This document shows, piece by piece, positions 1-6,734 of a stretch of DNA of 7,813 bases. The notes under the pieces are model-generated. The model was not told where the DNA came from and did not search any database. It saw only the letters and a list, made by a program, of their open reading frames with translations. Source of the stretch: Candidatus Bathyarchaeota archaeon (GTDB taxonomy: Archaea > Thermoproteota > Bathyarchaeia > TCS64); the NCBI GenBank assembly GCA_030601645.1, contig JAUWBQ010000079.1:1-7813 (forward strand), written 5' to 3'. The position numbers and the translations under genes are program-made. The stretch's first letter is position 1. Every line of letters begins with the position of its first letter.

Positions 1-686
1 ACGAGGGCGTCCCGCATCATCTCCCCCTTCTCCGCGGTGGCCAGGGTCGGGTCGCCTGTGGCCGCGTAGGGGGTGAGCTCGTCGAAGGTCCACTTCAGCT
101 GGACGTGCTCGGGGAGGTCGGGTATGACGCCCCTGGCCCTCTCCATGTCCACGAGGCCCGGCTCCACCGCTAGCATCATCGATGTCTCCCCCTCCCCTCC
201 GTGGCCGAGGCCGCCCCAGGCCTCGAAGGTATCCTCGGGGAGGAGGTCCCCCGCGGTCACCCACCAGGCCTCCAGGACCGCCACCTTCATCTCCGGGTGC
301 GCCACCCTGAACTCCCTGGTCGCGGCCTCGATCGCGGGTATGTTCCCGTCGTGGCCGTTGACTATGAGGAGCTTCAGGATGCCGTGGGCCAGCAGGGATT
401 CGAGGACCTCCCTCAGGACCTTAATGAGAGTCTCCGTGGTGAGTGTTATCGCGACTGGGAAGGAGGCGTAGTGGACGCTCATGCCGAAGGGTAGGCTGGG
501 GAGGACCAGGAGCCCCTCCACCCGATCCGCCACGGCCTCGGCGAGGTGCTCCGCCACCAGGGTGTCCGTCCCGTATGGGAGGTGTTCGCCGTGGGATTCC
601 GTCGACCCGACGGCGAGGACCGCCTTATCGTAGCCTCCGGACTTTAGATCGTGGGCGGTCATCCTCAGGAGACGTTTCTCGACCAT
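1..686 (-). CDS. Creatininase-family amidohydrolase, N-terminal 228 residues (3' end outside window)
   Basis: The reverse-strand frame is open from the ATG at 686 to the window edge. It carries the creatininase-family metal motifs: GSTESHGEHLPYGTD (residues 28-41, with E30, H32 and D41), NGHDGN (110-115, H112) and GHGGEGETSMM (161-171, E165/E167). Members are cytosolic dinuclear metal hydrolases acting on cyclic or formyl amides. In archaea the family includes the formamide hydrolase ArfB of the flavin/F420 pathway as well as uncharacterised enzymes, so the substrate cannot be assigned. Usual length is about 240-260 residues, so only a short C-terminal piece should be missing. A GTG three codons upstream is an alternative start, but the ATG fits the promoter, which predicts a leader of about 9 nt. 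The gene is GC-rich, unlike the island beside it. A decayed relative lies at 2040-2600. Confidence 0.9.
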   Translation of the reverse strand, partial: MVEKRLLRMTAHDLKSGGYDKAVLAVGSTESHGEHLPYGTDTLVAEHLAEAVADRVEGLLVLPSLPFGMSVHYASFPVAITLTTETLIKVLREVLESLLAHGILKLLIVNGHDGNIPAIEAATREFRVAHPEMKVAVLEAWWVTAGDLLPEDTFEAWGGLGHGGEGETSMMLAVEPGLVDMERARGVIPDLPEHVQLKWTFDELTPYAATGDPTLATAEKGEMMRDAL

Positions 687-715
687 CCTGGACACAGTAA
701 AGCAATTACGCCGAA

Positions 716-901: not shown

Positions 902-920
902 GTGTGTGTGTACGTGTGTG
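902..920. repeat. (GT)n alternating purine-pyrimidine tract, 19 nt
   Basis: GTGTGTGTGT followed by ACGTGTGTG alternates purine and pyrimidine without a break. Such tracts can adopt left-handed DNA and are slippage-prone. It marks the left edge of the AT-rich island. Confidence 0.85.
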
Positions 921-926
921 AAGTGT

Positions 927-980
927 TGGTGAGGATGAGGACCAAAAGGCGGTTAAGACATCAGTTTTCCATCCTCACCA
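927..980 (+). repeat. Inverted repeat, 11-bp perfect stem with 32-nt loop
   Basis: TGGTGAGGATG at 927-937 is the exact reverse complement of CATCCTCACCA at 970-980. Both arms fall in the 5' part of the transcript predicted from the TATA box at 881-890, and the left arm overlaps the possible start codons of the short ORF at 935. It could be an RNA hairpin or a remnant of an element's inverted ends; no further evidence separates these. Confidence 0.6.
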
Positions 981-1042
981 TTAGTTCTGTAGAGCTTCTA
1001 GCACATAGTAATTATTGGAAAAGGTTAGAGAAAAGTCAGTAA
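935..1042 (+). CDS. Possible 35-residue basic protein, or gene fragment
   Basis: An ATG at 935 (with in-frame GTG codons at 914, 923 and 929) opens a 35-codon frame ending in TAA at 1040-1042. The product is strongly basic at the N-terminus (MRTKRRLRHQ) and then mildly hydrophobic (FSILTISSVELL). The TATA-like box at 881-890 is at the right distance for a short-leader start. No family is recognised and there is no Shine-Dalgarno sequence. It may be chance or the truncated start of a longer gene, since the surrounding island is full of fragments. Confidence 0.25.
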   Translation: MRTKRRLRHQFSILTISSVELLAHSNYWKRLEKSQ

Positions 1043-1101
1043 GCAAGAATCACGAACATCAATACATATGTAAAATGTTAGTTAAGGTTAGGTTCATCCA
1101 T

Positions 1102-1111
1102 CACGCGCGCA
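1102..1111. repeat. (GC)n tract T1
   Basis: CACGCGCGCA, followed directly by copy 1 of the direct repeat. Its sequence context on the right matches that of tract T4. Confidence 0.8.
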
Positions 1112-1149
1112 GGCGAATTTAATAATTGTGTTAAAAATGGTTTTAATTC
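1104..1149 (+). repeat. Direct repeat, copy 1 (GC tract plus 39-nt AT-rich sequence)
   Basis: CGCGCGC at 1104-1110 is followed by 39 nt (1111-1149) that match 1908-1946 at 34 of 39 positions without a gap. The shared core is GCGAATTYAATAATTGTG, then AAAATGGTTTTAATTC. Similarity stops after 1149. Neither copy sits in a supported gene. The two copies are in the same orientation, 797 nt apart. Confidence 0.85.
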
Positions 1150-1220
1150 TTATTTTCTGATTTTAGTGCAGTTCTGGGACACGAGCATCAACATACACAG
1201 TTATCTCTCACGTGTTTTAG

Positions 1221-1229
1221 GTGCGCGCA
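1221..1229. repeat. (GC)n tract T2
   Basis: GTGCGCGCA lies 9 nt beyond the stop codon (TAG, 1238-1240) of the frameshifted minus-strand membrane-protein gene. Confidence 0.8.
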
Positions 1230-1237
1230 AGCCCAAG

Positions 1238-1688
1238 CTACCACATGCTAGCAATTCTGTGACCTTGATCGCTATGGGTTAGGTACTCTAAATAACCAAG
1301 TGCAATGATAATTACATTCATTATTACAACCCCCATTGCATAGTATCCCGCGGTAAATGCAAATACAAAAGGGATTTCAATTATACTTAATTTTATCGCA
1401 ACCATCGAGCCCCATTTCTTTTTTAAGAAGACACCATACATGGATGTAATGTATAACAATAGGAATGCAAGAATAGTTACTAATCTAAAACCGGAATACT
1501 TTGAAACAATATTAAGTTGAGAAAGTGCTCTTATCCCTAGTATACTCATGAATATATAGGAAAACCATATGGTCCCATCGGGTTCGTTTTCAATCAGTTC
1601 TCATCAACTCATTGAGGGAGACAGTGACTTCCGCGGATACATTATTTTTGAATACTTGCGCGAGCGATTTAACAAGTATCGACCACAC
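1238..1688 (-). pseudogene. Small multi-pass membrane protein gene broken by one frameshift
   Basis: Two reverse-strand frames join into one plausible protein of about 149 residues. The first runs from a GTG at 1688 (product MWSILVKSLAQVFKNNVSAE, ending in LNELMRTD) to a TGA at 1590-1592. The second is open from 1600 to the TAG at 1238-1240 and begins ELIENEPDGTIWFSYIFMSI. A +1 shift near 1597-1604 links them. The second part contains a hydrophobic stretch around IWFSYIFMSIL, a clear helix around TILAFLLLYITSMYGVFL, and two more around IEIPFVFAFTAGYYAMGVV and IMNVIIIALGYL. An ATG at 1549 gives a shorter 103-residue frame, but it would cut into the first hydrophobic segment and has no promoter at the right distance. 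The GTG start has a strong TATA box about 33 nt upstream. No family is recognised. A true frameshift mutation, a sequencing error and programmed shifting are all possible. Confidence 0.55.
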
Positions 1689-1717
1689 AACAGATAATGT
1701 ATTTACTTTAATTATTA

Positions 1718-1725
1718 TTTATAAA
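1718..1725 (-). promoter_or_regulatory. TATA box for the frameshifted membrane-protein gene
   Basis: TTTATAAA (reverse strand continuing to TTTATAAATA) is close to the archaeal consensus. A start site about 26 nt downstream would be near 1695, 7 nt before the GTG at 1688. This placement is the main reason to prefer that start over the ATG at 1549. Confidence 0.5.
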
Positions 1726-1789
1726 CGATTATTTAACATTTGATATACATTAGATGAAAAATATTAACATATTGTAAAGCAGCTAATGT

Positions 1790-1802
1790 TGCATGCGCGC
1801 GC
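1790..1802. repeat. (GC)n tract T3
   Basis: TGCATGCGCGCGC. On the reverse strand it overlaps the last base of the TAG stop of the 29-codon fragment (1802-1804). Confidence 0.8.
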
Positions 1803-1891
1803 TATCTTCTCCGCTGGTCCATATTTTCGTCGTATACAACCTTGCTCGTCATGGGGTCTACATCGTAACCCAGAAATTCAATAAACGCCGT
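1802..1891 (-). pseudogene. Orphan C-terminal gene fragment, 29 codons
   Basis: On the reverse strand, 29 codons of normal-looking protein (TAFIEFLGYDVDPMTSKVVY, then DENMDQRRR) end in a TAG at 1802-1804. The frame is closed upstream by a TAA at 1892-1894 and has no start codon near its beginning. The composition, rich in acidic and basic residues with a plausible charged C-terminus, differs from antisense shadow reading. It fills the space between GC tracts T4 and T3. I read it as the tail of a gene whose body is missing; the family is not recognised, and chance cannot be excluded at this length. Confidence 0.35.
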
Positions 1892-1898
1892 TTACCTT

Positions 1899-1908
1899 TG
1901 CGCGCGCG
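1899..1908. repeat. (GC)n tract T4
   Basis: TGCGCGCGCG, followed directly by copy 2 of the direct repeat; this context matches tract T1. Confidence 0.8.
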
Positions 1909-1946
1909 GGCGAATTCAATAATTGTGGGTAAAATGGTTTTAATTC
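1901..1946 (+). repeat. Direct repeat, copy 2
   Basis: Same orientation and layout as 1104-1149: CGCGCGC followed by the 39-nt sequence (34 of 39 identical). It ends about 95 nt before the start of the decayed creatininase gene. Confidence 0.85.
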
Positions 1947-2004
1947 GTTTTCACGTTAATCCTTGATATCCAGACATCGTCAGAACATTCAACGAGAATT
2001 CATT

Positions 2005-2012
2005 GTTTATTT
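2005..2012 (+). promoter_or_regulatory. TATA-like box upstream of the decayed creatininase gene
   Basis: GTTTATTT centred near 2008 predicts a start site near 2034, 6 nt before the ATG at 2040. This supports 2040 rather than 2064 as the original start codon. Confidence 0.35.
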
Positions 2013-2039
2013 GGGAGAACCACCTCAATAAGCTTAGGA

Positions 2040-2600
2040 ATGGCTAAAGAGACTGGTTCTCCCATGCTACTATTCGAGAACCTGACCTGGGTGGAGGCCG
2101 AGGAGGCCCTGAAGAAGCACGATGTGGTGATGATCCCCCTGGGGGCGAGGACCAAGGAGCACGGACCCCACCTCCCCCTGAACAACAACTGGATCATGGC
2201 CGAGTACCTCGCGTAGAAGGTGGCAGAGGAGGTGCCCGTCGCCGTGATGCCCACACTCCAGTACGGCTACTACCCCTCATTCCTCGAATACCCGGGGTCC
2301 GTCTCCCTGGGCCTGGAGACCTTCAAGGAGGTCTTGAAGGATATCTGCGTCTCATTGAATGGCTACGGCATCAGCAAGTTCTACGTCCTGAACACCGGGG
2401 TCTCCACAATACGGGGGCTGCAGCCCGCAGCCGAGGAGCTCAGGGAGCTGGGGATGGAGATGAGGTACACGGACATCCTGGCCTCGGGCGCCAGGGCGGA
2501 GGAGGGGGTCTCGGAGCAGGAGGGGGGCACCCACGCAGACGAGATGGAGACCAGTATGATGCTATTACATAGTTCTTATAATTATTGGGTGTTCTATTAG
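2040..2600 (+). pseudogene. Decayed creatininase-family gene (internal TAG, lost ligands, broken 3' end)
   Basis: Starting at ATG 2040 (or ATG 2064), the frame encodes a creatininase relative: LTWVEAEEAL, then GARTKEHGPHLPLNNNW, FLEYPGSVSLGLETF, FYVLNTGVST and THADEMETSMML. It is interrupted by a TAG at 2214-2216 inside AEYLA-stop-KVAEEV, where one change from CAG would restore glutamine. The metal-binding Asp of the usual GTD/NTD motif reads Asn here, and the NGHGGN histidine is replaced by NTGVST. After about 2565 the similarity stops and the frame runs through AT-rich sequence to a TAG at 2598-2600, so roughly the last third is missing. GC-rich codon use resembles the chromosomal genes, not the surrounding AT-rich sequence. 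It is a divergent paralogue of the intact gene at 1-686, not a recent copy. Initiation at GTG 2220 could give a 126-residue fragment, but it would lack the first metal site. Confidence 0.8.
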
Positions 2601-2637
2601 GCAGTTTGCTCTGATTTTCTGTTTGTTTTTCAGTTCC

Positions 2638-2655
2638 TGTGTGTGCGCGCGCGCG
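2638..2655. repeat. (TG/CG)n tract T5, 18 nt
   Basis: TGTGTGTGCGCGCGCGCG is the longest uninterrupted alternating tract that includes GCGCGC. It lies about 38 nt beyond the broken 3' end of the creatininase pseudogene, at the transition to an unrelated AT-rich segment. Confidence 0.85.
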
Positions 2656-2789
2656 AACTTCAGCCAAGGCATAATGGGGTTAGGTAGTTCAAACCAGAAA
2701 CCACACAAGAACCCCTCATGTCCGTCACAGACTCCTTCCACTGCCTAACCCTTCCCCTTTTTATTGACTTAAGATTCGTAGGATCAATA

Positions 2790-3312
2790 ATGTTTTTTGA
2801 ATTAAGTTTCTTCTTATAGTCTGATCTCCAAGTAGTCAACGACAAGTACATTGTATGGCGATGGGCTAAACCTTCTAAAAGATTTGTACCAACAAGAAAT
2901 CGATCTTGGGGAGATGTGGAATTGGGGATATTCAATTATGTAGTTTTCGCTGGGCTCTCACCAACGGCTTGGATTTGGATAGGTCGAGCAAGGCCGAGTG
3001 AGGGTGCTGTATTACATAGAATATCTCTCAATAGGGAGGAAGCATCTCGTTGTGTCGTGGCCGAACAGTATTTTGATCCTTCTGAAAAGGAGATCGATGA
3101 ATATCTCATGAGAACAGGTAGGAAACGCATAGGTAGCCTGAATGGATATTCTAGGGAGCAATATCCGTTATCATTCATTCCATTACCAGAATATGATGAT
3201 GAACATAACATGCCTGAGGTTCTGATACCGTTTGAAGTTGAGGCCAATGTCGATTGGATTAGAACCTATTGGGTTAGACTTGGTGAAACTCAATCCCCGA
3301 TTGCGCGCGCGC
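2790..3312 (+). pseudogene. Unrecognised gene with an early TAG and truncated 3' end
   Basis: ATG 2790 opens MFFELSFFL and meets a TAG at 2817-2819. The same frame then stays open with convincing protein sequence: DLQVVNDKYIVWRWAKPSKR, AWIWIGRARPSEGAVLHR, EEASRCVVAEQYFDPSEKEI, PLPEYDDEHNMPEVLIPFEV and VDWIRTYWVRLGE. Protein-like composition begins at 2820, well before the first downstream start codon (GTG 2916), so starting at the GTG would discard real coding sequence. At GC tract T6 (3302-3312) the composition changes; the in-frame continuation to TAG 3513-3515 is Ser/Ile/Phe-rich and antisense to minus-strand coding-like sequence, so I end the gene at T6. The product is soluble, rich in Trp, Tyr and charged residues, with no motif I recognise. 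I read it as a nonsense-mutated, 3'-truncated gene. Confidence 0.5.
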
Positions 3313-3472
3313 CTAATATTAATCCATTAAAAAAACCAATAGCATTCTCTCCAACTTGTTCTATAAATCTATCTAATCCTTCTTACGGCGTAATTAATTG
3401 TTTTATCTCAACAAGTTCCGTTTTTTTCCTTCCATTCATCAATGTATTGATCTCTGGCTTGGGGCGCGCACG
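3290..3472 (-). pseudogene. Stop-interrupted fragment in frame with the upstream subtilisin-like gene
   Basis: Beyond the TGA of the subtilisin-like gene (3473-3475) the same reverse-strand frame continues RARPKPEINTLMNGRKKTEL, VEIKQLITP, a TAA at 3383-3385, then EGLDRFIEQVGENAIGFFNG, LILGARAIGD and a TGA at 3290-3292. The composition is more protein-like than the opposite strand. It lies between GC tracts T7 and T6 and reads through T6. An ATG at 3439 has no ribosome-binding site. It is probably a decayed piece of a separate gene placed after tract T7; a former C-terminal extension of the upstream protein is the alternative. No family is recognised. Confidence 0.3.
3302..3312. repeat. (GC)n tract T6
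   Basis: TGCGCGCGCGC marks where plausible + strand coding ends and plausible minus-strand coding begins. Confidence 0.8.
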
Positions 3473-3473
3473 T
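3464..3473. repeat. (GC)n tract T7
   Basis: GCGCGCACGT immediately follows, and by one base overlaps, the TGA stop codon of the subtilisin-like gene on the reverse strand. Confidence 0.8.
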
Positions 3474-4498
3474 CATAAGATCTTGATACTCGCTAGTTCA
3501 GTTTTGGAAGCGTAGTCACCAAAACACTGCTCAGTTATGGCTCGGCTGATGAAGCCTGCGCCTACTTCATGTGGTTGATATCCTTGCATAGGTATCGCTA
3601 ACTTCATCACGAAGTCTTTTATGTTCCAGGGGTGCTTGCTGACTTTAAACCTGAGGATTTTATAGCAGCCACCTATGGATAGGGTAATCACTCTCTGAGT
3701 ATGCCCTAAGTTCATATGTTCCTCCATATATCCCATTATATTTGCTATGGCTCCACTTACATCTGCAGCAGCCATACTCGTTCCTGAAACTACGATGTAA
3801 TGATCCAGCTTGTCTTCAGAGATAAATTGCCTATCTTTTGCTAGTTGTTCTGGAGTTTTTTTGATATCAGGCGGATGTGTGGTAACTCTATCGATCCCCG
3901 GTCCAACAACTGTTGGTCTATAAAGCTGGTCGCCCGGTCTGCCTCGCGACGAAAAATCAGCCAACTTTTTGCCATTTTTAGTTGCAGCTCCGACTCCAAT
4001 TACCCAGGGTGCTACAGACCAAGGATTCAACGTGTCATTTCCTAACCTGCCGTAGTTACCAACTGCAATCACAACGGTCATACCAGCTTCATAGAGTCTC
4101 TTCGTAGCGACGTTGACCGGTTCGTCGGGATCAAAGCTTAGAGTACCTGGCCTCTCTATGGGAGGACCCAGACTCATGTTAACGATCGAAGCTCTTTCCG
4201 CCTTCATGGATAGTATATATTGGGCTGCCTTAAGGAGATTGAAATAGGGATCAAATATTCCCGGATTCACGTACCAAATCTTTTCTACCTTAGCTTCCTT
4301 CGCTAGCTCCTTTAGGCGACCCGCTTGAATTTTAACGGCGGCATATCGGAGACCTTGGCCTAAGAATCGTCCATTTCTGGAGCTAACCAGACTTTCTAGC
4401 GACTTTGGATCCTCTGACGTCTCAACTATGACCTTCATCTCGGCAGATGGGTAAGTCCTTGAAATGTTTTTTAGACGAGGGTCAATCTCATCAAGCAT
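3473..4498 (-). CDS. Subtilisin-fold (S8) protein lacking catalytic Asp and His; probable pseudopeptidase
   Basis: The product has 341 residues. Residues ~21-78 (MKVIVETSED to VEKIWYV) resemble the I9 propeptide/inhibitor domain of subtilases. The subtilisin core follows: SIVNMSLG (104-111), VVIAVGNYG (142-150, oxyanion-hole N148), the PTVVGPGIDRVTTHP segment (195-209) and the serine motif SGTSMAAADVSGA (238-250, S241; Ala replaces the usual Pro). The C-terminal VGAGFISRA matches the GAGLV-type end of S8 domains. The segments that should carry the DTG aspartate and HGTHVAG histidine are absent: the text goes from the propeptide end (VNPGIFDPYF) straight into the helix before NMSLG. The frame is otherwise intact, so this is a clean in-frame loss. 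With no signal peptide or membrane segment, the product should stay in the cytosol. The 236-residue gene lies 19 nt upstream without an intervening promoter, so the two are probably co-transcribed. Lower GC than the flanks suggests transfer. It may be a scaffold, inhibitor or regulatory pseudoenzyme; peptidase activity is unlikely from these residues. Confidence 0.8.
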   Translation of the reverse strand: MLDEIDPRLKNISRTYPSAEMKVIVETSEDPKSLESLVSSRNGRFLGQGLRYAAVKIQAGRLKELAKEAKVEKIWYVNPGIFDPYFNLLKAAQYILSMKAERASIVNMSLGPPIERPGTLSFDPDEPVNVATKRLYEAGMTVVIAVGNYGRLGNDTLNPWSVAPWVIGVGAATKNGKKLADFSSRGRPGDQLYRPTVVGPGIDRVTTHPPDIKKTPEQLAKDRQFISEDKLDHYIVVSGTSMAAADVSGAIANIMGYMEEHMNLGHTQRVITLSIGGCYKILRFKVSKHPWNIKDFVMKLAIPMQGYQPHEVGAGFISRAITEQCFGDYASKTELASIKIL

Positions 4499-4517
4499 TT
4501 CTGATCATATCGAGAAT

Positions 4518-5228
4518 TCAAATAGGGCTTGGGTTGAATTGAATCGTACTCTCTCCTGCCACTCTCGCACTGTCGTTTAATATGAGTGGAATGCGTCGCC
4601 TGTCAAAAAATACTCCTAATTCAAAAAATATTTTCATTTGCTCCACGATACGTGGACGCATTATCACGACCTTAAGGTCTATACCCCCTTGGGGTGCCTC
4701 ACCACTCGCTGAGCGAAAGTTCCAGTGGAAATTCGAGCCAGATGTTCCAGAGTCTACACGTGCTATCCTTGGGATGTAGCTAAATTCAACTTTAGCTTCA
4801 CCTTCGAAACCCCCCTCACTAAATTTCTTCATCAAGTCTGGTAATTTATTAAAACCCAGACTCGCAGACACGCCAAAATCTCCAGACACTTTCCAGTTTG
4901 GATCCACGAATTCTGTGGATGGAAAGATATGAGTCACGCAGGGACGCTGCAGAGGAGGATCCCAGGGATTGAGAGTACACTGTATGTTAACACATTTAGG
5001 CCTATACTGTGGTTTAGCGTTAATTACAATTTGAAACTCTGAAAGATGGAAGTCATATTTGGATCGCCATTCCCGAACGAAATCATCCACTTGTGTCGCT
5101 TCAATCAATAAGTTCTTCGAAAAAATTTGATCCGGAATGCCCACATAGCCACCCTTCGATTCCTGAGCCTCTTGCAGGATAGCTGTTTGAGCCTCAATTT
5201 CACTAGGTAAGAGCATTGGAACTTCCAT
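4518..5228 (-). CDS. Unrecognised 236-residue protein, first gene of the pseudo-subtilisin operon
   Basis: No family is recognised. After an acidic N-terminal helix (residues ~8-25) the chain appears beta-rich: LSEFQIVIN (62-70), a Cys/Pro-rich stretch with C79, C84 and C97 (CVNIQCTLNPWDPPLQRPC), then NWKVSGDFGVSASLGF (111-126), GEAKVEFSYIPRIARV (143-158) and GGIDLKVVIMRPRIVEQMKI (181-200), with helix-like DLMKKFSEGGF between strands. There is no signal peptide or obvious transmembrane helix. The alternating polar/hydrophobic strands could belong to a beta-sandwich or a pore-forming fold; this is speculation. The ATG is preceded by a well-placed BRE/TATA, giving an essentially leaderless mRNA, so the start is well supported. 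The gene is intact in an island where most neighbours are broken, which argues that it is functional. It probably works with the pseudo-subtilisin 19 nt downstream. Confidence 0.75.
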   Translation of the reverse strand: MEVPMLLPSEIEAQTAILQEAQESKGGYVGIPDQIFSKNLLIEATQVDDFVREWRSKYDFHLSEFQIVINAKPQYRPKCVNIQCTLNPWDPPLQRPCVTHIFPSTEFVDPNWKVSGDFGVSASLGFNKLPDLMKKFSEGGFEGEAKVEFSYIPRIARVDSGTSGSNFHWNFRSASGEAPQGGIDLKVVIMRPRIVEQMKIFFELGVFFDRRRIPLILNDSARVAGESTIQFNPSPI

Positions 5229-5251
5229 GTTTTAATTTTAATTTTATCACA

Positions 5252-5266
5252 CATATAAGTTTTACG
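5252..5266 (-). promoter_or_regulatory. BRE/TATA promoter of the two-gene operon
   Basis: The reverse strand reads CGTAAAA (BRE, 5260-5266) followed by CTTATATG (TATA, 5252-5259). The TATA centre is about 27 nt from the ATG at 5228, predicting a leaderless transcript. GC tract T8 begins only 4 nt upstream of the BRE. Confidence 0.7.
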
Positions 5267-5269
5267 CGG

Positions 5270-5281
5270 ACGCGCGCGCGC
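5270..5281. repeat. (GC)n tract T8
   Basis: ACGCGCGCGCGC joins the truncated IS110 transposase stub (5282 onward) to the promoter region of the operon. Confidence 0.85.
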
Positions 5282-5465
5282 TCCGGATCTTCACCTTGAG
5301 CTTGGTCTGCTGCCGGACTAGGAACGCCCTTCGTCTCACCTTCTCCCGGAGCTCCGCGATAATCGGCGGGGGCATGTAGCTCTCGGGGAGGCTGTTCAAC
5401 CTGAGCAGCTCCGCAAGGGCCATGGAGTCGACCCTATCCGTCTTGATGCGGGCCTCCGCGTCAAA
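5282..5465 (-). pseudogene. IS110-family transposase fragment (~62 codons, both ends lost)
   Basis: The reverse strand encodes FDAEARIKTDRVDSMALAEL, LRLNSLPESYMPPP, AELREKVRRRAFLVRQQTKL and KVKIRS. The KTDRVD motif followed by an LA-LLR helix, the PPP-x-ELRE linker and the RRR-FLVR-TKLK helix are characteristic of the segment joining the DEDD catalytic domain to the second domain of IS110-family transposases. These enzymes cut and join with an RNA-guided (bridge RNA) mechanism. A full protein has about 300-400 residues; here everything upstream is lost at a TAG (5466-5468), and everything downstream is replaced by GC tract T8. No element ends or guide-RNA region can be recognised. It is a dead relic, but it shows that this site has hosted a mobile element. 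Confidence 0.8.
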
Positions 5466-5657: not shown

Positions 5658-6734
5658 TCAAGATCTGTTGAGTTCGAAGCCAGCCTCCAAAGCCTTCAGG
5701 GAGGCGACTAGAATCTTCACCAGGTTCTCCATGTCCTTAAGGTCGAAGAGCTCCACCGGGCTGTGGGAGTACCGCCTGGGGACGCCGACGGTGATGGCGG
5801 GGATGCCGCCCCTTGTCTGGGCCATGGCGGAGGCGTCGGTCCCCCCGAGCTGGTAGCTCATCTGGTAGGGGATGCCCTCTGCCTCAGCCGTCTCCGCCAG
5901 CCATCTCCTCAGCTTGTGGTGGTATATCCAGGTCCGGCGGCTCCCCATCTCGCCGATGTGGATGGCCGGGCCCTTTCCCACCTCGTAGACCACGTCCCTC
6001 ATGTTCACGTCGGGCTGCCACCCGGAGGGCGCGGTGTCCACTGCCACGGCCGCATCCACGTCGAGGTCGTGGAGGGCCACCTCTGCGCCTCTGAGGCCTC
6101 CCTCCTCCTCCACGGTTCCGATGTAGTAGACCGTGGCGGGGATGGCCTCGTCCCTCAGGGCCTCGGCGACCGCCAGCAGCACCGTGAGGCCCGCCTTGTC
6201 GTCCACGGCGGGGCTGGCGATGAGGTCGTTGGCCAACTCCAGGGGCCTGGCGCCGAAGACGATGGGGGTTCCCACCCTGACTCCCATGGCCTCGACCTCC
6301 TCCCTGCTCCAAGCGCCGATGTCGATGTACATCTCCTCGATGGAAGGGACAACGTTGGCCTCCTCGGGCTTGGTGACGTGGCCGGGCTTGATGCCCACCA
6401 CCCCGGGGACGGGACCCTTCTCCCCGAGGAGCCTCATCTGCTGCCCCTGGATGGCCCTGTTCGCGGCCCCACCCACCTTCCTGAACCTGACGAACCCCCT
6501 GTCATCGATGTTGAAGACGCAGAAGCCGACCTGGTCCATGTGGGCTGCTAGGGCCACAGAGGGCGCCTCGGGGTCCGTGCCCTTCTGGATGCCTACGACG
6601 TTCCCCCTGGGGGTGTCGTAAACCTCGTCCACGAGGGGATCCAGCTCTGCCTTGAAGAAGGCTATCATGGGCTCCTCGAAGCCGTAGGGGGAGCCAACCT
6701 CCACCAGCCTGAAGAACGTGTCCTTGAGTTCCAT
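5658..6734 (-). CDS. M42-family metallo-aminopeptidase (TET/endoglucanase-M type)
   Basis: The 358-residue product is full length for the family. M42 metal and catalytic residues are present: AHMDQVG (H65, D67), SPAVDDKAG (bridging Asp at 178-179), TVEEEGGLRGA (catalytic E210, metal ligand E211), AVDTAPSG (D233) and YSHSPVE (H324). M42 enzymes usually bind two divalent metals (zinc or cobalt) and form dodecameric tetrahedral (TET) particles in the cytosol, trimming short peptides from the N-terminus downstream of the proteasome. Substrate preference cannot be read from sequence. The start is supported by a GAGGTG ribosome-binding site 6 nt upstream. The gene is GC-rich and ordinary for the chromosome; its 3' end borders the island. 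Confidence 0.95.
   Translation of the reverse strand: MELKDTFFRLVEVGSPYGFEEPMIAFFKAELDPLVDEVYDTPRGNVVGIQKGTDPEAPSVALAAHMDQVGFCVFNIDDRGFVRFRKVGGAANRAIQGQQMRLLGEKGPVPGVVGIKPGHVTKPEEANVVPSIEEMYIDIGAWSREEVEAMGVRVGTPIVFGARPLELANDLIASPAVDDKAGLTVLLAVAEALRDEAIPATVYYIGTVEEEGGLRGAEVALHDLDVDAAVAVDTAPSGWQPDVNMRDVVYEVGKGPAIHIGEMGSRRTWIYHHKLRRWLAETAEAEGIPYQMSYQLGGTDASAMAQTRGGIPAITVGVPRRYSHSPVELFDLKDMENLVKILVASLKALEAGFELNRS

What the first reader, a model, noticed from the sequence alone, without database searches (positions are those of the whole stretch)
902..5281. Nine alternating purine-pyrimidine tracts punctuate a mosaic island of gene fragments
Eight tracts containing GCGCGC (1102, 1221, 1790, 1899, 2638, 3302, 3464, 5270) and one GT tract (902) all lie in the AT-rich island. 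I saw none of this length in the more GC-rich flanks, the reverse of what base composition predicts. They coincide with boundaries: just past the stops at 1238, 1802 and 3473, at the switch of coding strand at 3302, at the cut end of the IS110 stub at 5282, and 4 nt before the operon's BRE. The inference is that segments were joined at these tracts, either by a recombination process using them as sites (a cassette-like array) or by breakage at Z-DNA-prone fragile DNA. An artefact is conceivable, since every tract contains GCGCGC, a common six-base restriction site (BssHII).
Basis: partly seen in the sequence, partly recalled or inferred. Interest (0 to 1): 0.72.

Follow-up and report, generated by a model that had tools for sequence, protein, structure and literature searches.

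The report
Jumping genes that target CG tracts
The odd CGCGCG stretches in this archaeal DNA look like landing sites of a family of small jumping genes; two of the eight stretches still carry the tip of such an element, and insertions of this kind help explain how an ordinary gene neighbourhood was broken up.

Summary
In detail: eight alternating CG runs of 6 nt or more lie in the AT-rich island 902-5281 (shuffled mean 0.5, maximum 4 in 1000) and none in the flanks. The window is bathyarchaeal. In two relatives the locus holds intact creatininase 1, creatininase 2 and M42 peptidase genes in a row; in the window creatininase 2 is cut up by foreign DNA. Tracts 1104 and 1900 carry the terminal repeat (CRGGCNNDTTHAATAATT) of an IS5/IS1182-like insertion sequence found in 8 of 61 relatives. 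Of 56 tips read, 50 abut at least 3 nt of alternating CG; 0 of 120 matches to a near-identical pattern in viral contigs do. Three insertions, compared with a relative lacking them, show a CG tract already at the site; the one with both flanks comparable fits a 2-bp CG duplication. Other comparisons show no tract, but those alignments end 9 nt or more before the tip. So the tracts act as integration sites, and an insertion leaves a tract on both sides. Six of the eight window tracts have no recognised tip, and at 5271 related uninterrupted genes lack a tract. New target specificity in a known kind of element.

The parts
3..695 (-). creatininase 1, host gene (open at the window start)
   Evidence: PF02633; orthologue next to creatininase 2 in L002
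778..806 (+). 5' end of host creatininase 2 (MALESVWIE), cut after TCGAGAA
   Evidence: aligned with intact genes in L002 and L001
807..1055 (+). segment X (contains the GT tract 902-920)
   Evidence: 851-1028 is 75% identical to G002:C50:8680-8860, where X follows an IS left end at TCGAGAAC; the only match in 61 genomes
1104..1190 (+). CG tract 1104-1110 and left end of an element; repeat at 1110-1127
   Evidence: 85% identical over 1104-1190 to L033 in G001; exact repeat pattern
1223..1228 (.). CG tract without recognised element tip
1238..1549 (-). 103-aa ORF, no family above cut-off
1795..1802 (.). CG tract without recognised element tip
1900..2080 (+). CG tract 1900-1908 and IS left end: repeat at 1907-1924, leader, first transposase codons from 2040 (MAKETGSPMLLFEN) running in frame into creatininase 2
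   Evidence: 1906-2081 is 90% identical to a stretch of G002:C50
2074..2563 (+). rest of host creatininase 2, with an in-frame stop at 2214-2216; its 3' part is missing
   Evidence: 84% identical to L001 and L002; PF02633; stop
2645..2655 (.). CG tract without recognised element tip
3303..3312 (.). CG tract without recognised element tip
3464..3469 (.). CG tract without recognised element tip, 4 nt past the stop of the subtilase ORF
3473..4498 (-). subtilase-like ORF (PF00082), possible cargo
4518..5228 (-). 236-aa ORF; nine homologues besides the window's own in the protein collection, none in 61 relatives
5271..5281 (.). CG tract at the cut end of the IS110 fragment
5280..5460 (-). fragment of an IS110 transposase gene
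   Evidence: 85% identical to two copies in G001; PF01548 above cut-off for 5283-5459
5658..6734 (-). M42 aminopeptidase, host gene, right border of the broken locus
   Evidence: PF05343

Best explanation
The (CG)n tracts are integration sites of an insertion-sequence family of the IS5/IS1182 kind and of derivatives without transposase. Shown: tips of the form CRGGCNNDTTHAATAATT lie directly beside alternating CG runs, two of them in this window (1104, 1900); at three sites a relative without the insertion has a CG tract; at the one site with both flanks comparable the filled site is 2 bp longer. Inferred: the transposase cuts inside an alternating CG tract (minimal site G^CG^C) and duplicates CG; since a tract remains on both sides, the site stays open to further insertions, so elements and what they carry can pile up. 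Also inferred: such piling up, with deletions and with IS110, made the island and destroyed creatininase 2. The creatininase cut itself was a separate event: segment X and the IS left end are both joined to the gene at the shared word TCGAGAA, as if a circle opened at that word had been integrated.
For: Repeat pattern at 56 places in 8 of 61 genomes, 0 with the pattern reversed. 56 tips read (54 of those places and 2 in the window): 50 abut at least 3 nt of alternating CG, 42 at least 4; in viral contigs 0 of 120 matches to a slightly stricter pattern do. Sites without the insertion: G001:C3 has CGCGCGCG where G002:C11 has CGCGCG-IS-CGCG; G002:C12 has a tract where G001:C86 has an IS end; G019:C22 has GTGCGCGC where G012:C84 has an IS end. 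Copies of one element in G001 with the same end sequence have CG runs of 3 to 8 nt, so the run is not a fixed part of it. G003 has 64 GCGCGCGC but no repeat and no transposase match. Intact locus in L001 and L002. More distant relatives with other repeats also abut CG runs (15 of 16 tips).
Against: Six of eight window tracts have no recognised tip, and no right-hand tip is found in the window with up to 3 mismatches. At 5271 the two uninterrupted IS110 copies in G001 have no tract. Counterparts of G011:C24 (in G019, G016), G001:C25, G001:C85, G001:C86 (in G008) and G012:C84 (in G016, G010) have no tract, though alignments end 9 nt or more before the tip. The creatininase cut is not at a tract. 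In two sister groups the run is almost constant (6 or 7 nt), which could mean it belongs to the element there. Two of the three site comparisons have one flank only.
Confidence: 0.72

Rival explanations
1. The CG run is part of the element's own ends, carried with it and changed in length by slippage; there is no target preference.
For: Run of 6 or 7 nt at 15 of 16 tips of two sister groups; sites with no tract in some relatives; no tract in uninterrupted IS110 at 5271.
Against: Three sites without the insertion hold a tract; end-identical G001 copies have runs of 3 to 8 nt.
Confidence: 0.15
2. The tracts without insertion are footprints: elements jumped in and out and left CG behind, so that tracts are products as much as targets.
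For: A 2-bp gain per insertion would do this; most window tracts have no element now; a CG run sits at a deletion inside a decayed copy in G010.
Against: Genomes without the repeat have as many tracts (G003); no excision product was observed.
Confidence: 0.2
3. Fragile Z-prone DNA broke and was rejoined at the tracts without a dedicated enzyme.
For: Tracts at the IS110 fragment's end and beside gene ends.
Against: Specific repeat sequence beside the tract at 50 of 56 tips and reproducible element ends.
Confidence: 0.1
4. An integron-like cassette array joined by a site-specific recombinase.
For: Gene-bearing segments lie between tracts.
Against: No integrase among the nine window ORFs scanned with Pfam; the ends are inverted repeats of a DDE transposase element. 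No dedicated attC search was made.
Confidence: 0.02
5. Cloning or assembly chimera at BssHII sites.
For: Every tract contains GCGCGC.
Against: Same kind of joins in several independent assemblies, one on a 445-kb contig, with run lengths that vary.
Confidence: 0.01

Closest known systems
IS1182 family, in particular IS1272 (PMC5678879: abstract and the section on targets read)
   Same: Best NCBIfam match of the transposase is the IS1182 model; IS1272 also chooses a self-complementary target.
   Different: Score 60.5 against a cut-off of 270; IS1272 was reported to replace inverted repeats with no duplication, whereas here a CG run is split and the one whole site gains 2 bp.
IS5 family (PMC5493358: passages read)
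   Same: DDE_Tnp_1 and DUF772 domains; weak IS5 model matches; that paper ties IS5 insertion to DNA structure.
   Different: IS5 target there is Py-T-A-Pu, with destabilised DNA; IS5 model scores are far below cut-off.
IS elements that target REP palindromes (PMC1525189, search listing only)
   Same: Target is a short dispersed palindromic sequence.
   Different: Here the target is a dinucleotide run.
IS110/IS1111 with guide RNA (PMC11187229, PMC11208160, search listings only)
   Same: An IS110 fragment lies beside tract 5271, and in G001 an IS110 end abuts two IS tips.
   Different: The tip-bearing family has a DDE transposase; no guide RNA was sought.

Membership tests
Insertion sequence with DDE transposase (general kind) | one transposase gene between terminal inverted repeats | tested here: met
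   complete copies in G012 and G002, 335-aa ORF, DDE_Tnp_1 and DUF772 above cut-off; the window holds only left ends
IS1182 family | transposase reaches the curated NCBIfam score | tested here: not met
   60.5 and 55.6 bits, cut-off 270
IS1182 family | target is an inverted repeat that is replaced, no duplication (as reported for IS1272) | tested here: not met
   the one whole site: 8 nt of CG empty, 6+4 filled
IS5 family | transposase reaches the curated NCBIfam score | tested here: not met
   best 33.3 bits, cut-off 140
MITE (derivative without transposase) | both ends of an autonomous element, no transposase | tested here: met
   in relatives: G002:C39:6387-6692 and G011:C145:818-1289; not met in the window, where no right-hand end is found
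Integron cassette array | integron integrase | tested here: not met
   none among nine window ORFs scanned
Integron cassette array | attC sites | not tested
   no dedicated search
IS110 family (fragment 5280-5460) | DEDD_Tnp_IS110 domain | tested here: met
   PF01548, 35.3 bits, cut-off 29; partial gene

The most novel reading that the evidence does not exclude
A transposase clade reads alternating CG DNA, perhaps in its left-handed form, as its landing site; its 2-bp duplication lengthens the tract at each visit, so the element strengthens its own targets and builds arrays of gene-bearing segments separated by CG tracts.
Probability: 0.2. Interest if true: 0.8.

Novelty: new variant of a known kind. 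Interest (0 to 1): 0.5.

Why it matters
A mobile element that chooses (CG)n tracts would link DNA shape to where genomes of uncultured archaea are broken and rebuilt, gives a simple mark for finding its insertions, and offers a natural system to ask whether Z-forming DNA guides transposition. I saw no report of such a target in seven searches of an open-licence paper library, which misses most subscription journals.

Tried and rejected
Rfam and tRNA searches of the window: nothing. The G002 transposase in viral contigs: no relative confirmed. DNA 2560-3480 and the 236-aa protein: no match in 61 relatives. Segment X: one match, in G002. Defence-system scan of four island ORFs: one weak subtilase match. 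Transposase in solved structures: no meaningful match. Spread: 5 of 398 genomes of a phylum sample, G001 among them, match the transposase profile at E 1e-20, so the clade is not common there. Considered and left as an idea: X as a site-specific element with target TCGAGAAC; the word borders X in two unrelated genes, but there is one copy outside the window and no recombinase with it. Structure prediction was not run.

Full report
What is there. The window's M42 peptidase finds 16 loci, the eleven nearest from Bathyarchaeota. No whole genome is held for the window, so relatives were used. In G002 (L002) creatininase 1, creatininase 2 (249 aa) and the M42 peptidase lie next to each other; in G001 (L001) the three genes are in the same order, with about 650 nt between the creatininases that include a CGCGCGC run. 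In the window creatininase 2 stops after TCGAGAA at 806 and resumes at 2074-2080 with the same word, an insert of about 1.27 kb; homology ends for good at 2563, and about 3.1 kb of foreign DNA follow before the M42 gene. The second piece has an in-frame stop at 2214-2216.

The tracts. Eight alternating CG runs of 6 nt or more lie in 902-5281 against a shuffled mean of 0.5, none in the flanks against 1.2. Genome-wide they are not rare: GCGCGCGC occurs 9 to 105 times in each of seven relatives, which by a rough estimate of mine is near what base composition gives. The local density is the anomaly.

The element. A 51-nt direct repeat at 1104 and 1901 led to a dispersed family in G001 and G002, then by DNA in 7 of 61 relatives. 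Complete copies in G012 and G002 are insertion sequences of about 1.3 kb with a 335-aa transposase (DDE_Tnp_1, DUF772), inverted repeats CRGGCNNDTTHAATAATT, and CG runs outside both ends. The best NCBIfam model is IS1182, below its cut-off. Elements without transposase carry other genes: a winged-helix gene between two ends in G011:C145, with relatives of that gene beside ends in G001:C27, G001:C54 and G011:C56, and a CxxCxxCC protein between two repeat-like ends in G011:C147.

Tracts beside tips. The repeat pattern occurs at 56 places in 8 of 61 genomes and never reversed. I read 54 of them and the two in the window. Two were not in that script: G001:C27 and G010:C1:1836772; they show 6 and 4 nt. 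CG run directly outside: 0 nt in 3, 1 in 1, 2 in 2, 3 in 8, 4 in 11, 5 in 8, 6 in 14, 7 in 7, 8 in 2, so 50 of 56 have at least 3. Two of the three zeros abut the same IS110-side sequence (IS110 by Pfam). In viral contigs 0 of 120 matches to a slightly stricter pattern have 3 nt or more (the scan stopped at its limit and nothing says what those places are).

Sites without the insertion. Flanks were compared in two searches (seven and ten flanks). (1) G001:C3 holds GAAATGAA-CGCGCGCG-GCTGAG where G002:C11 holds CGCGCG-IS-CGCG: 8 nt against 6+4, a gain of 2. (2) G002:C12 holds GAGGCGGCGCGCGCC where G001:C86 holds an IS end after GAGGCGGCG. (3) G019:C22 holds GTGCGCGC where G012:C84 holds an IS end after GCGCG. 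Cases 2 and 3 rest on one flank. Against: counterparts of G001:C25 (G002, G008, G010, G003 and others), G001:C85 (G008, G019), G011:C24 (G019, G016), G001:C86 (G008) and G012:C84 (G016, G010, G003) show no tract at the place. These alignments end before the tip, by 9 nt for G011:C24 and by more than that for the rest, and the bases there have diverged; in G008 a GCGCGCG run lies within about 25 nt of the G001:C25 place. The remaining flanks gave no usable counterpart.

Wider clade. Transposases 31 and 35% identical to that of G002 belong to groups with other repeats (NAGGNTGTTTAGAAA; ATNNGTGTTCATTAATT), and 15 of 16 tips of these groups in the loci at hand abut a CG run of 6 or 7 nt. These loci came in mainly through transposase similarity and are no random sample. 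The near-constant length leaves open that part of the run belongs to those elements; no insertion-free site was found for them.

What remains in the window. Tracts 1104 and 1900 carry tips; no right-hand tip is found with up to 3 mismatches. The other six have none. At 5271 the tract sits where an IS110 gene is cut, and two uninterrupted copies in G001, 85% identical, have no tract there. There the tract came with the joined DNA, arose later, or was private to this copy.

The creatininase cut. Both junctions lie at TCGAGAA. Joining the insert's right end to its left end gives, up to a few bases, the junction seen in G002:C50, where an IS leader meets segment X at TCGAGAAC. A circular form opened at this word is the simplest reading. 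It is inference; rejoining at the short shared word is the alternative, helped by a loose similarity between the starts of the two genes.

Literature. IS1272 of the IS1182 family was reported to replace inverted repeats (PMC5678879, abstract and one section read). IS5 insertion has been tied to DNA structure (PMC5493358, passages). No paper on a CG-tract target was seen in seven searches.

Verdict. Observation confirmed. Most likely a new target specificity in a known kind of mobile element; the link is shown for two of the eight window tracts and inferred for the rest.

Noticed in passing
window 2040-2083: First codons of the IS transposase run in frame into creatininase 2, and the two genes' starts look alike (..GSP..ENL).
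   Followed up: partly
G001:C30 (L095, L217) and G001:C81 (L193, L218): The same IS110 end abuts the tips of two different IS copies at the first base of the repeat, as if that IS110 uses the other element's tip as its site.
   Followed up: partly
G011:C145:818-1289 (L075), G001:C27, G001:C54, G011:C56: Elements without transposase that carry a winged-helix regulator gene between the same kind of ends.
   Followed up: partly
G010:C1, L087 (reverse complement 2283 and 2363): CG runs of 10 and 9 nt inside a decayed IS copy, one of them at an internal deletion.
   Followed up: no
window 3473-5228: Subtilase-like ORF with a 236-aa partner ORF just upstream, lying between tracts 3464 and 5271; the partner has nine homologues in the protein collection besides the window's own.
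   Followed up: partly
L002 11081-13441: Three creatininase-family ORFs in a row in G002.
   Followed up: no
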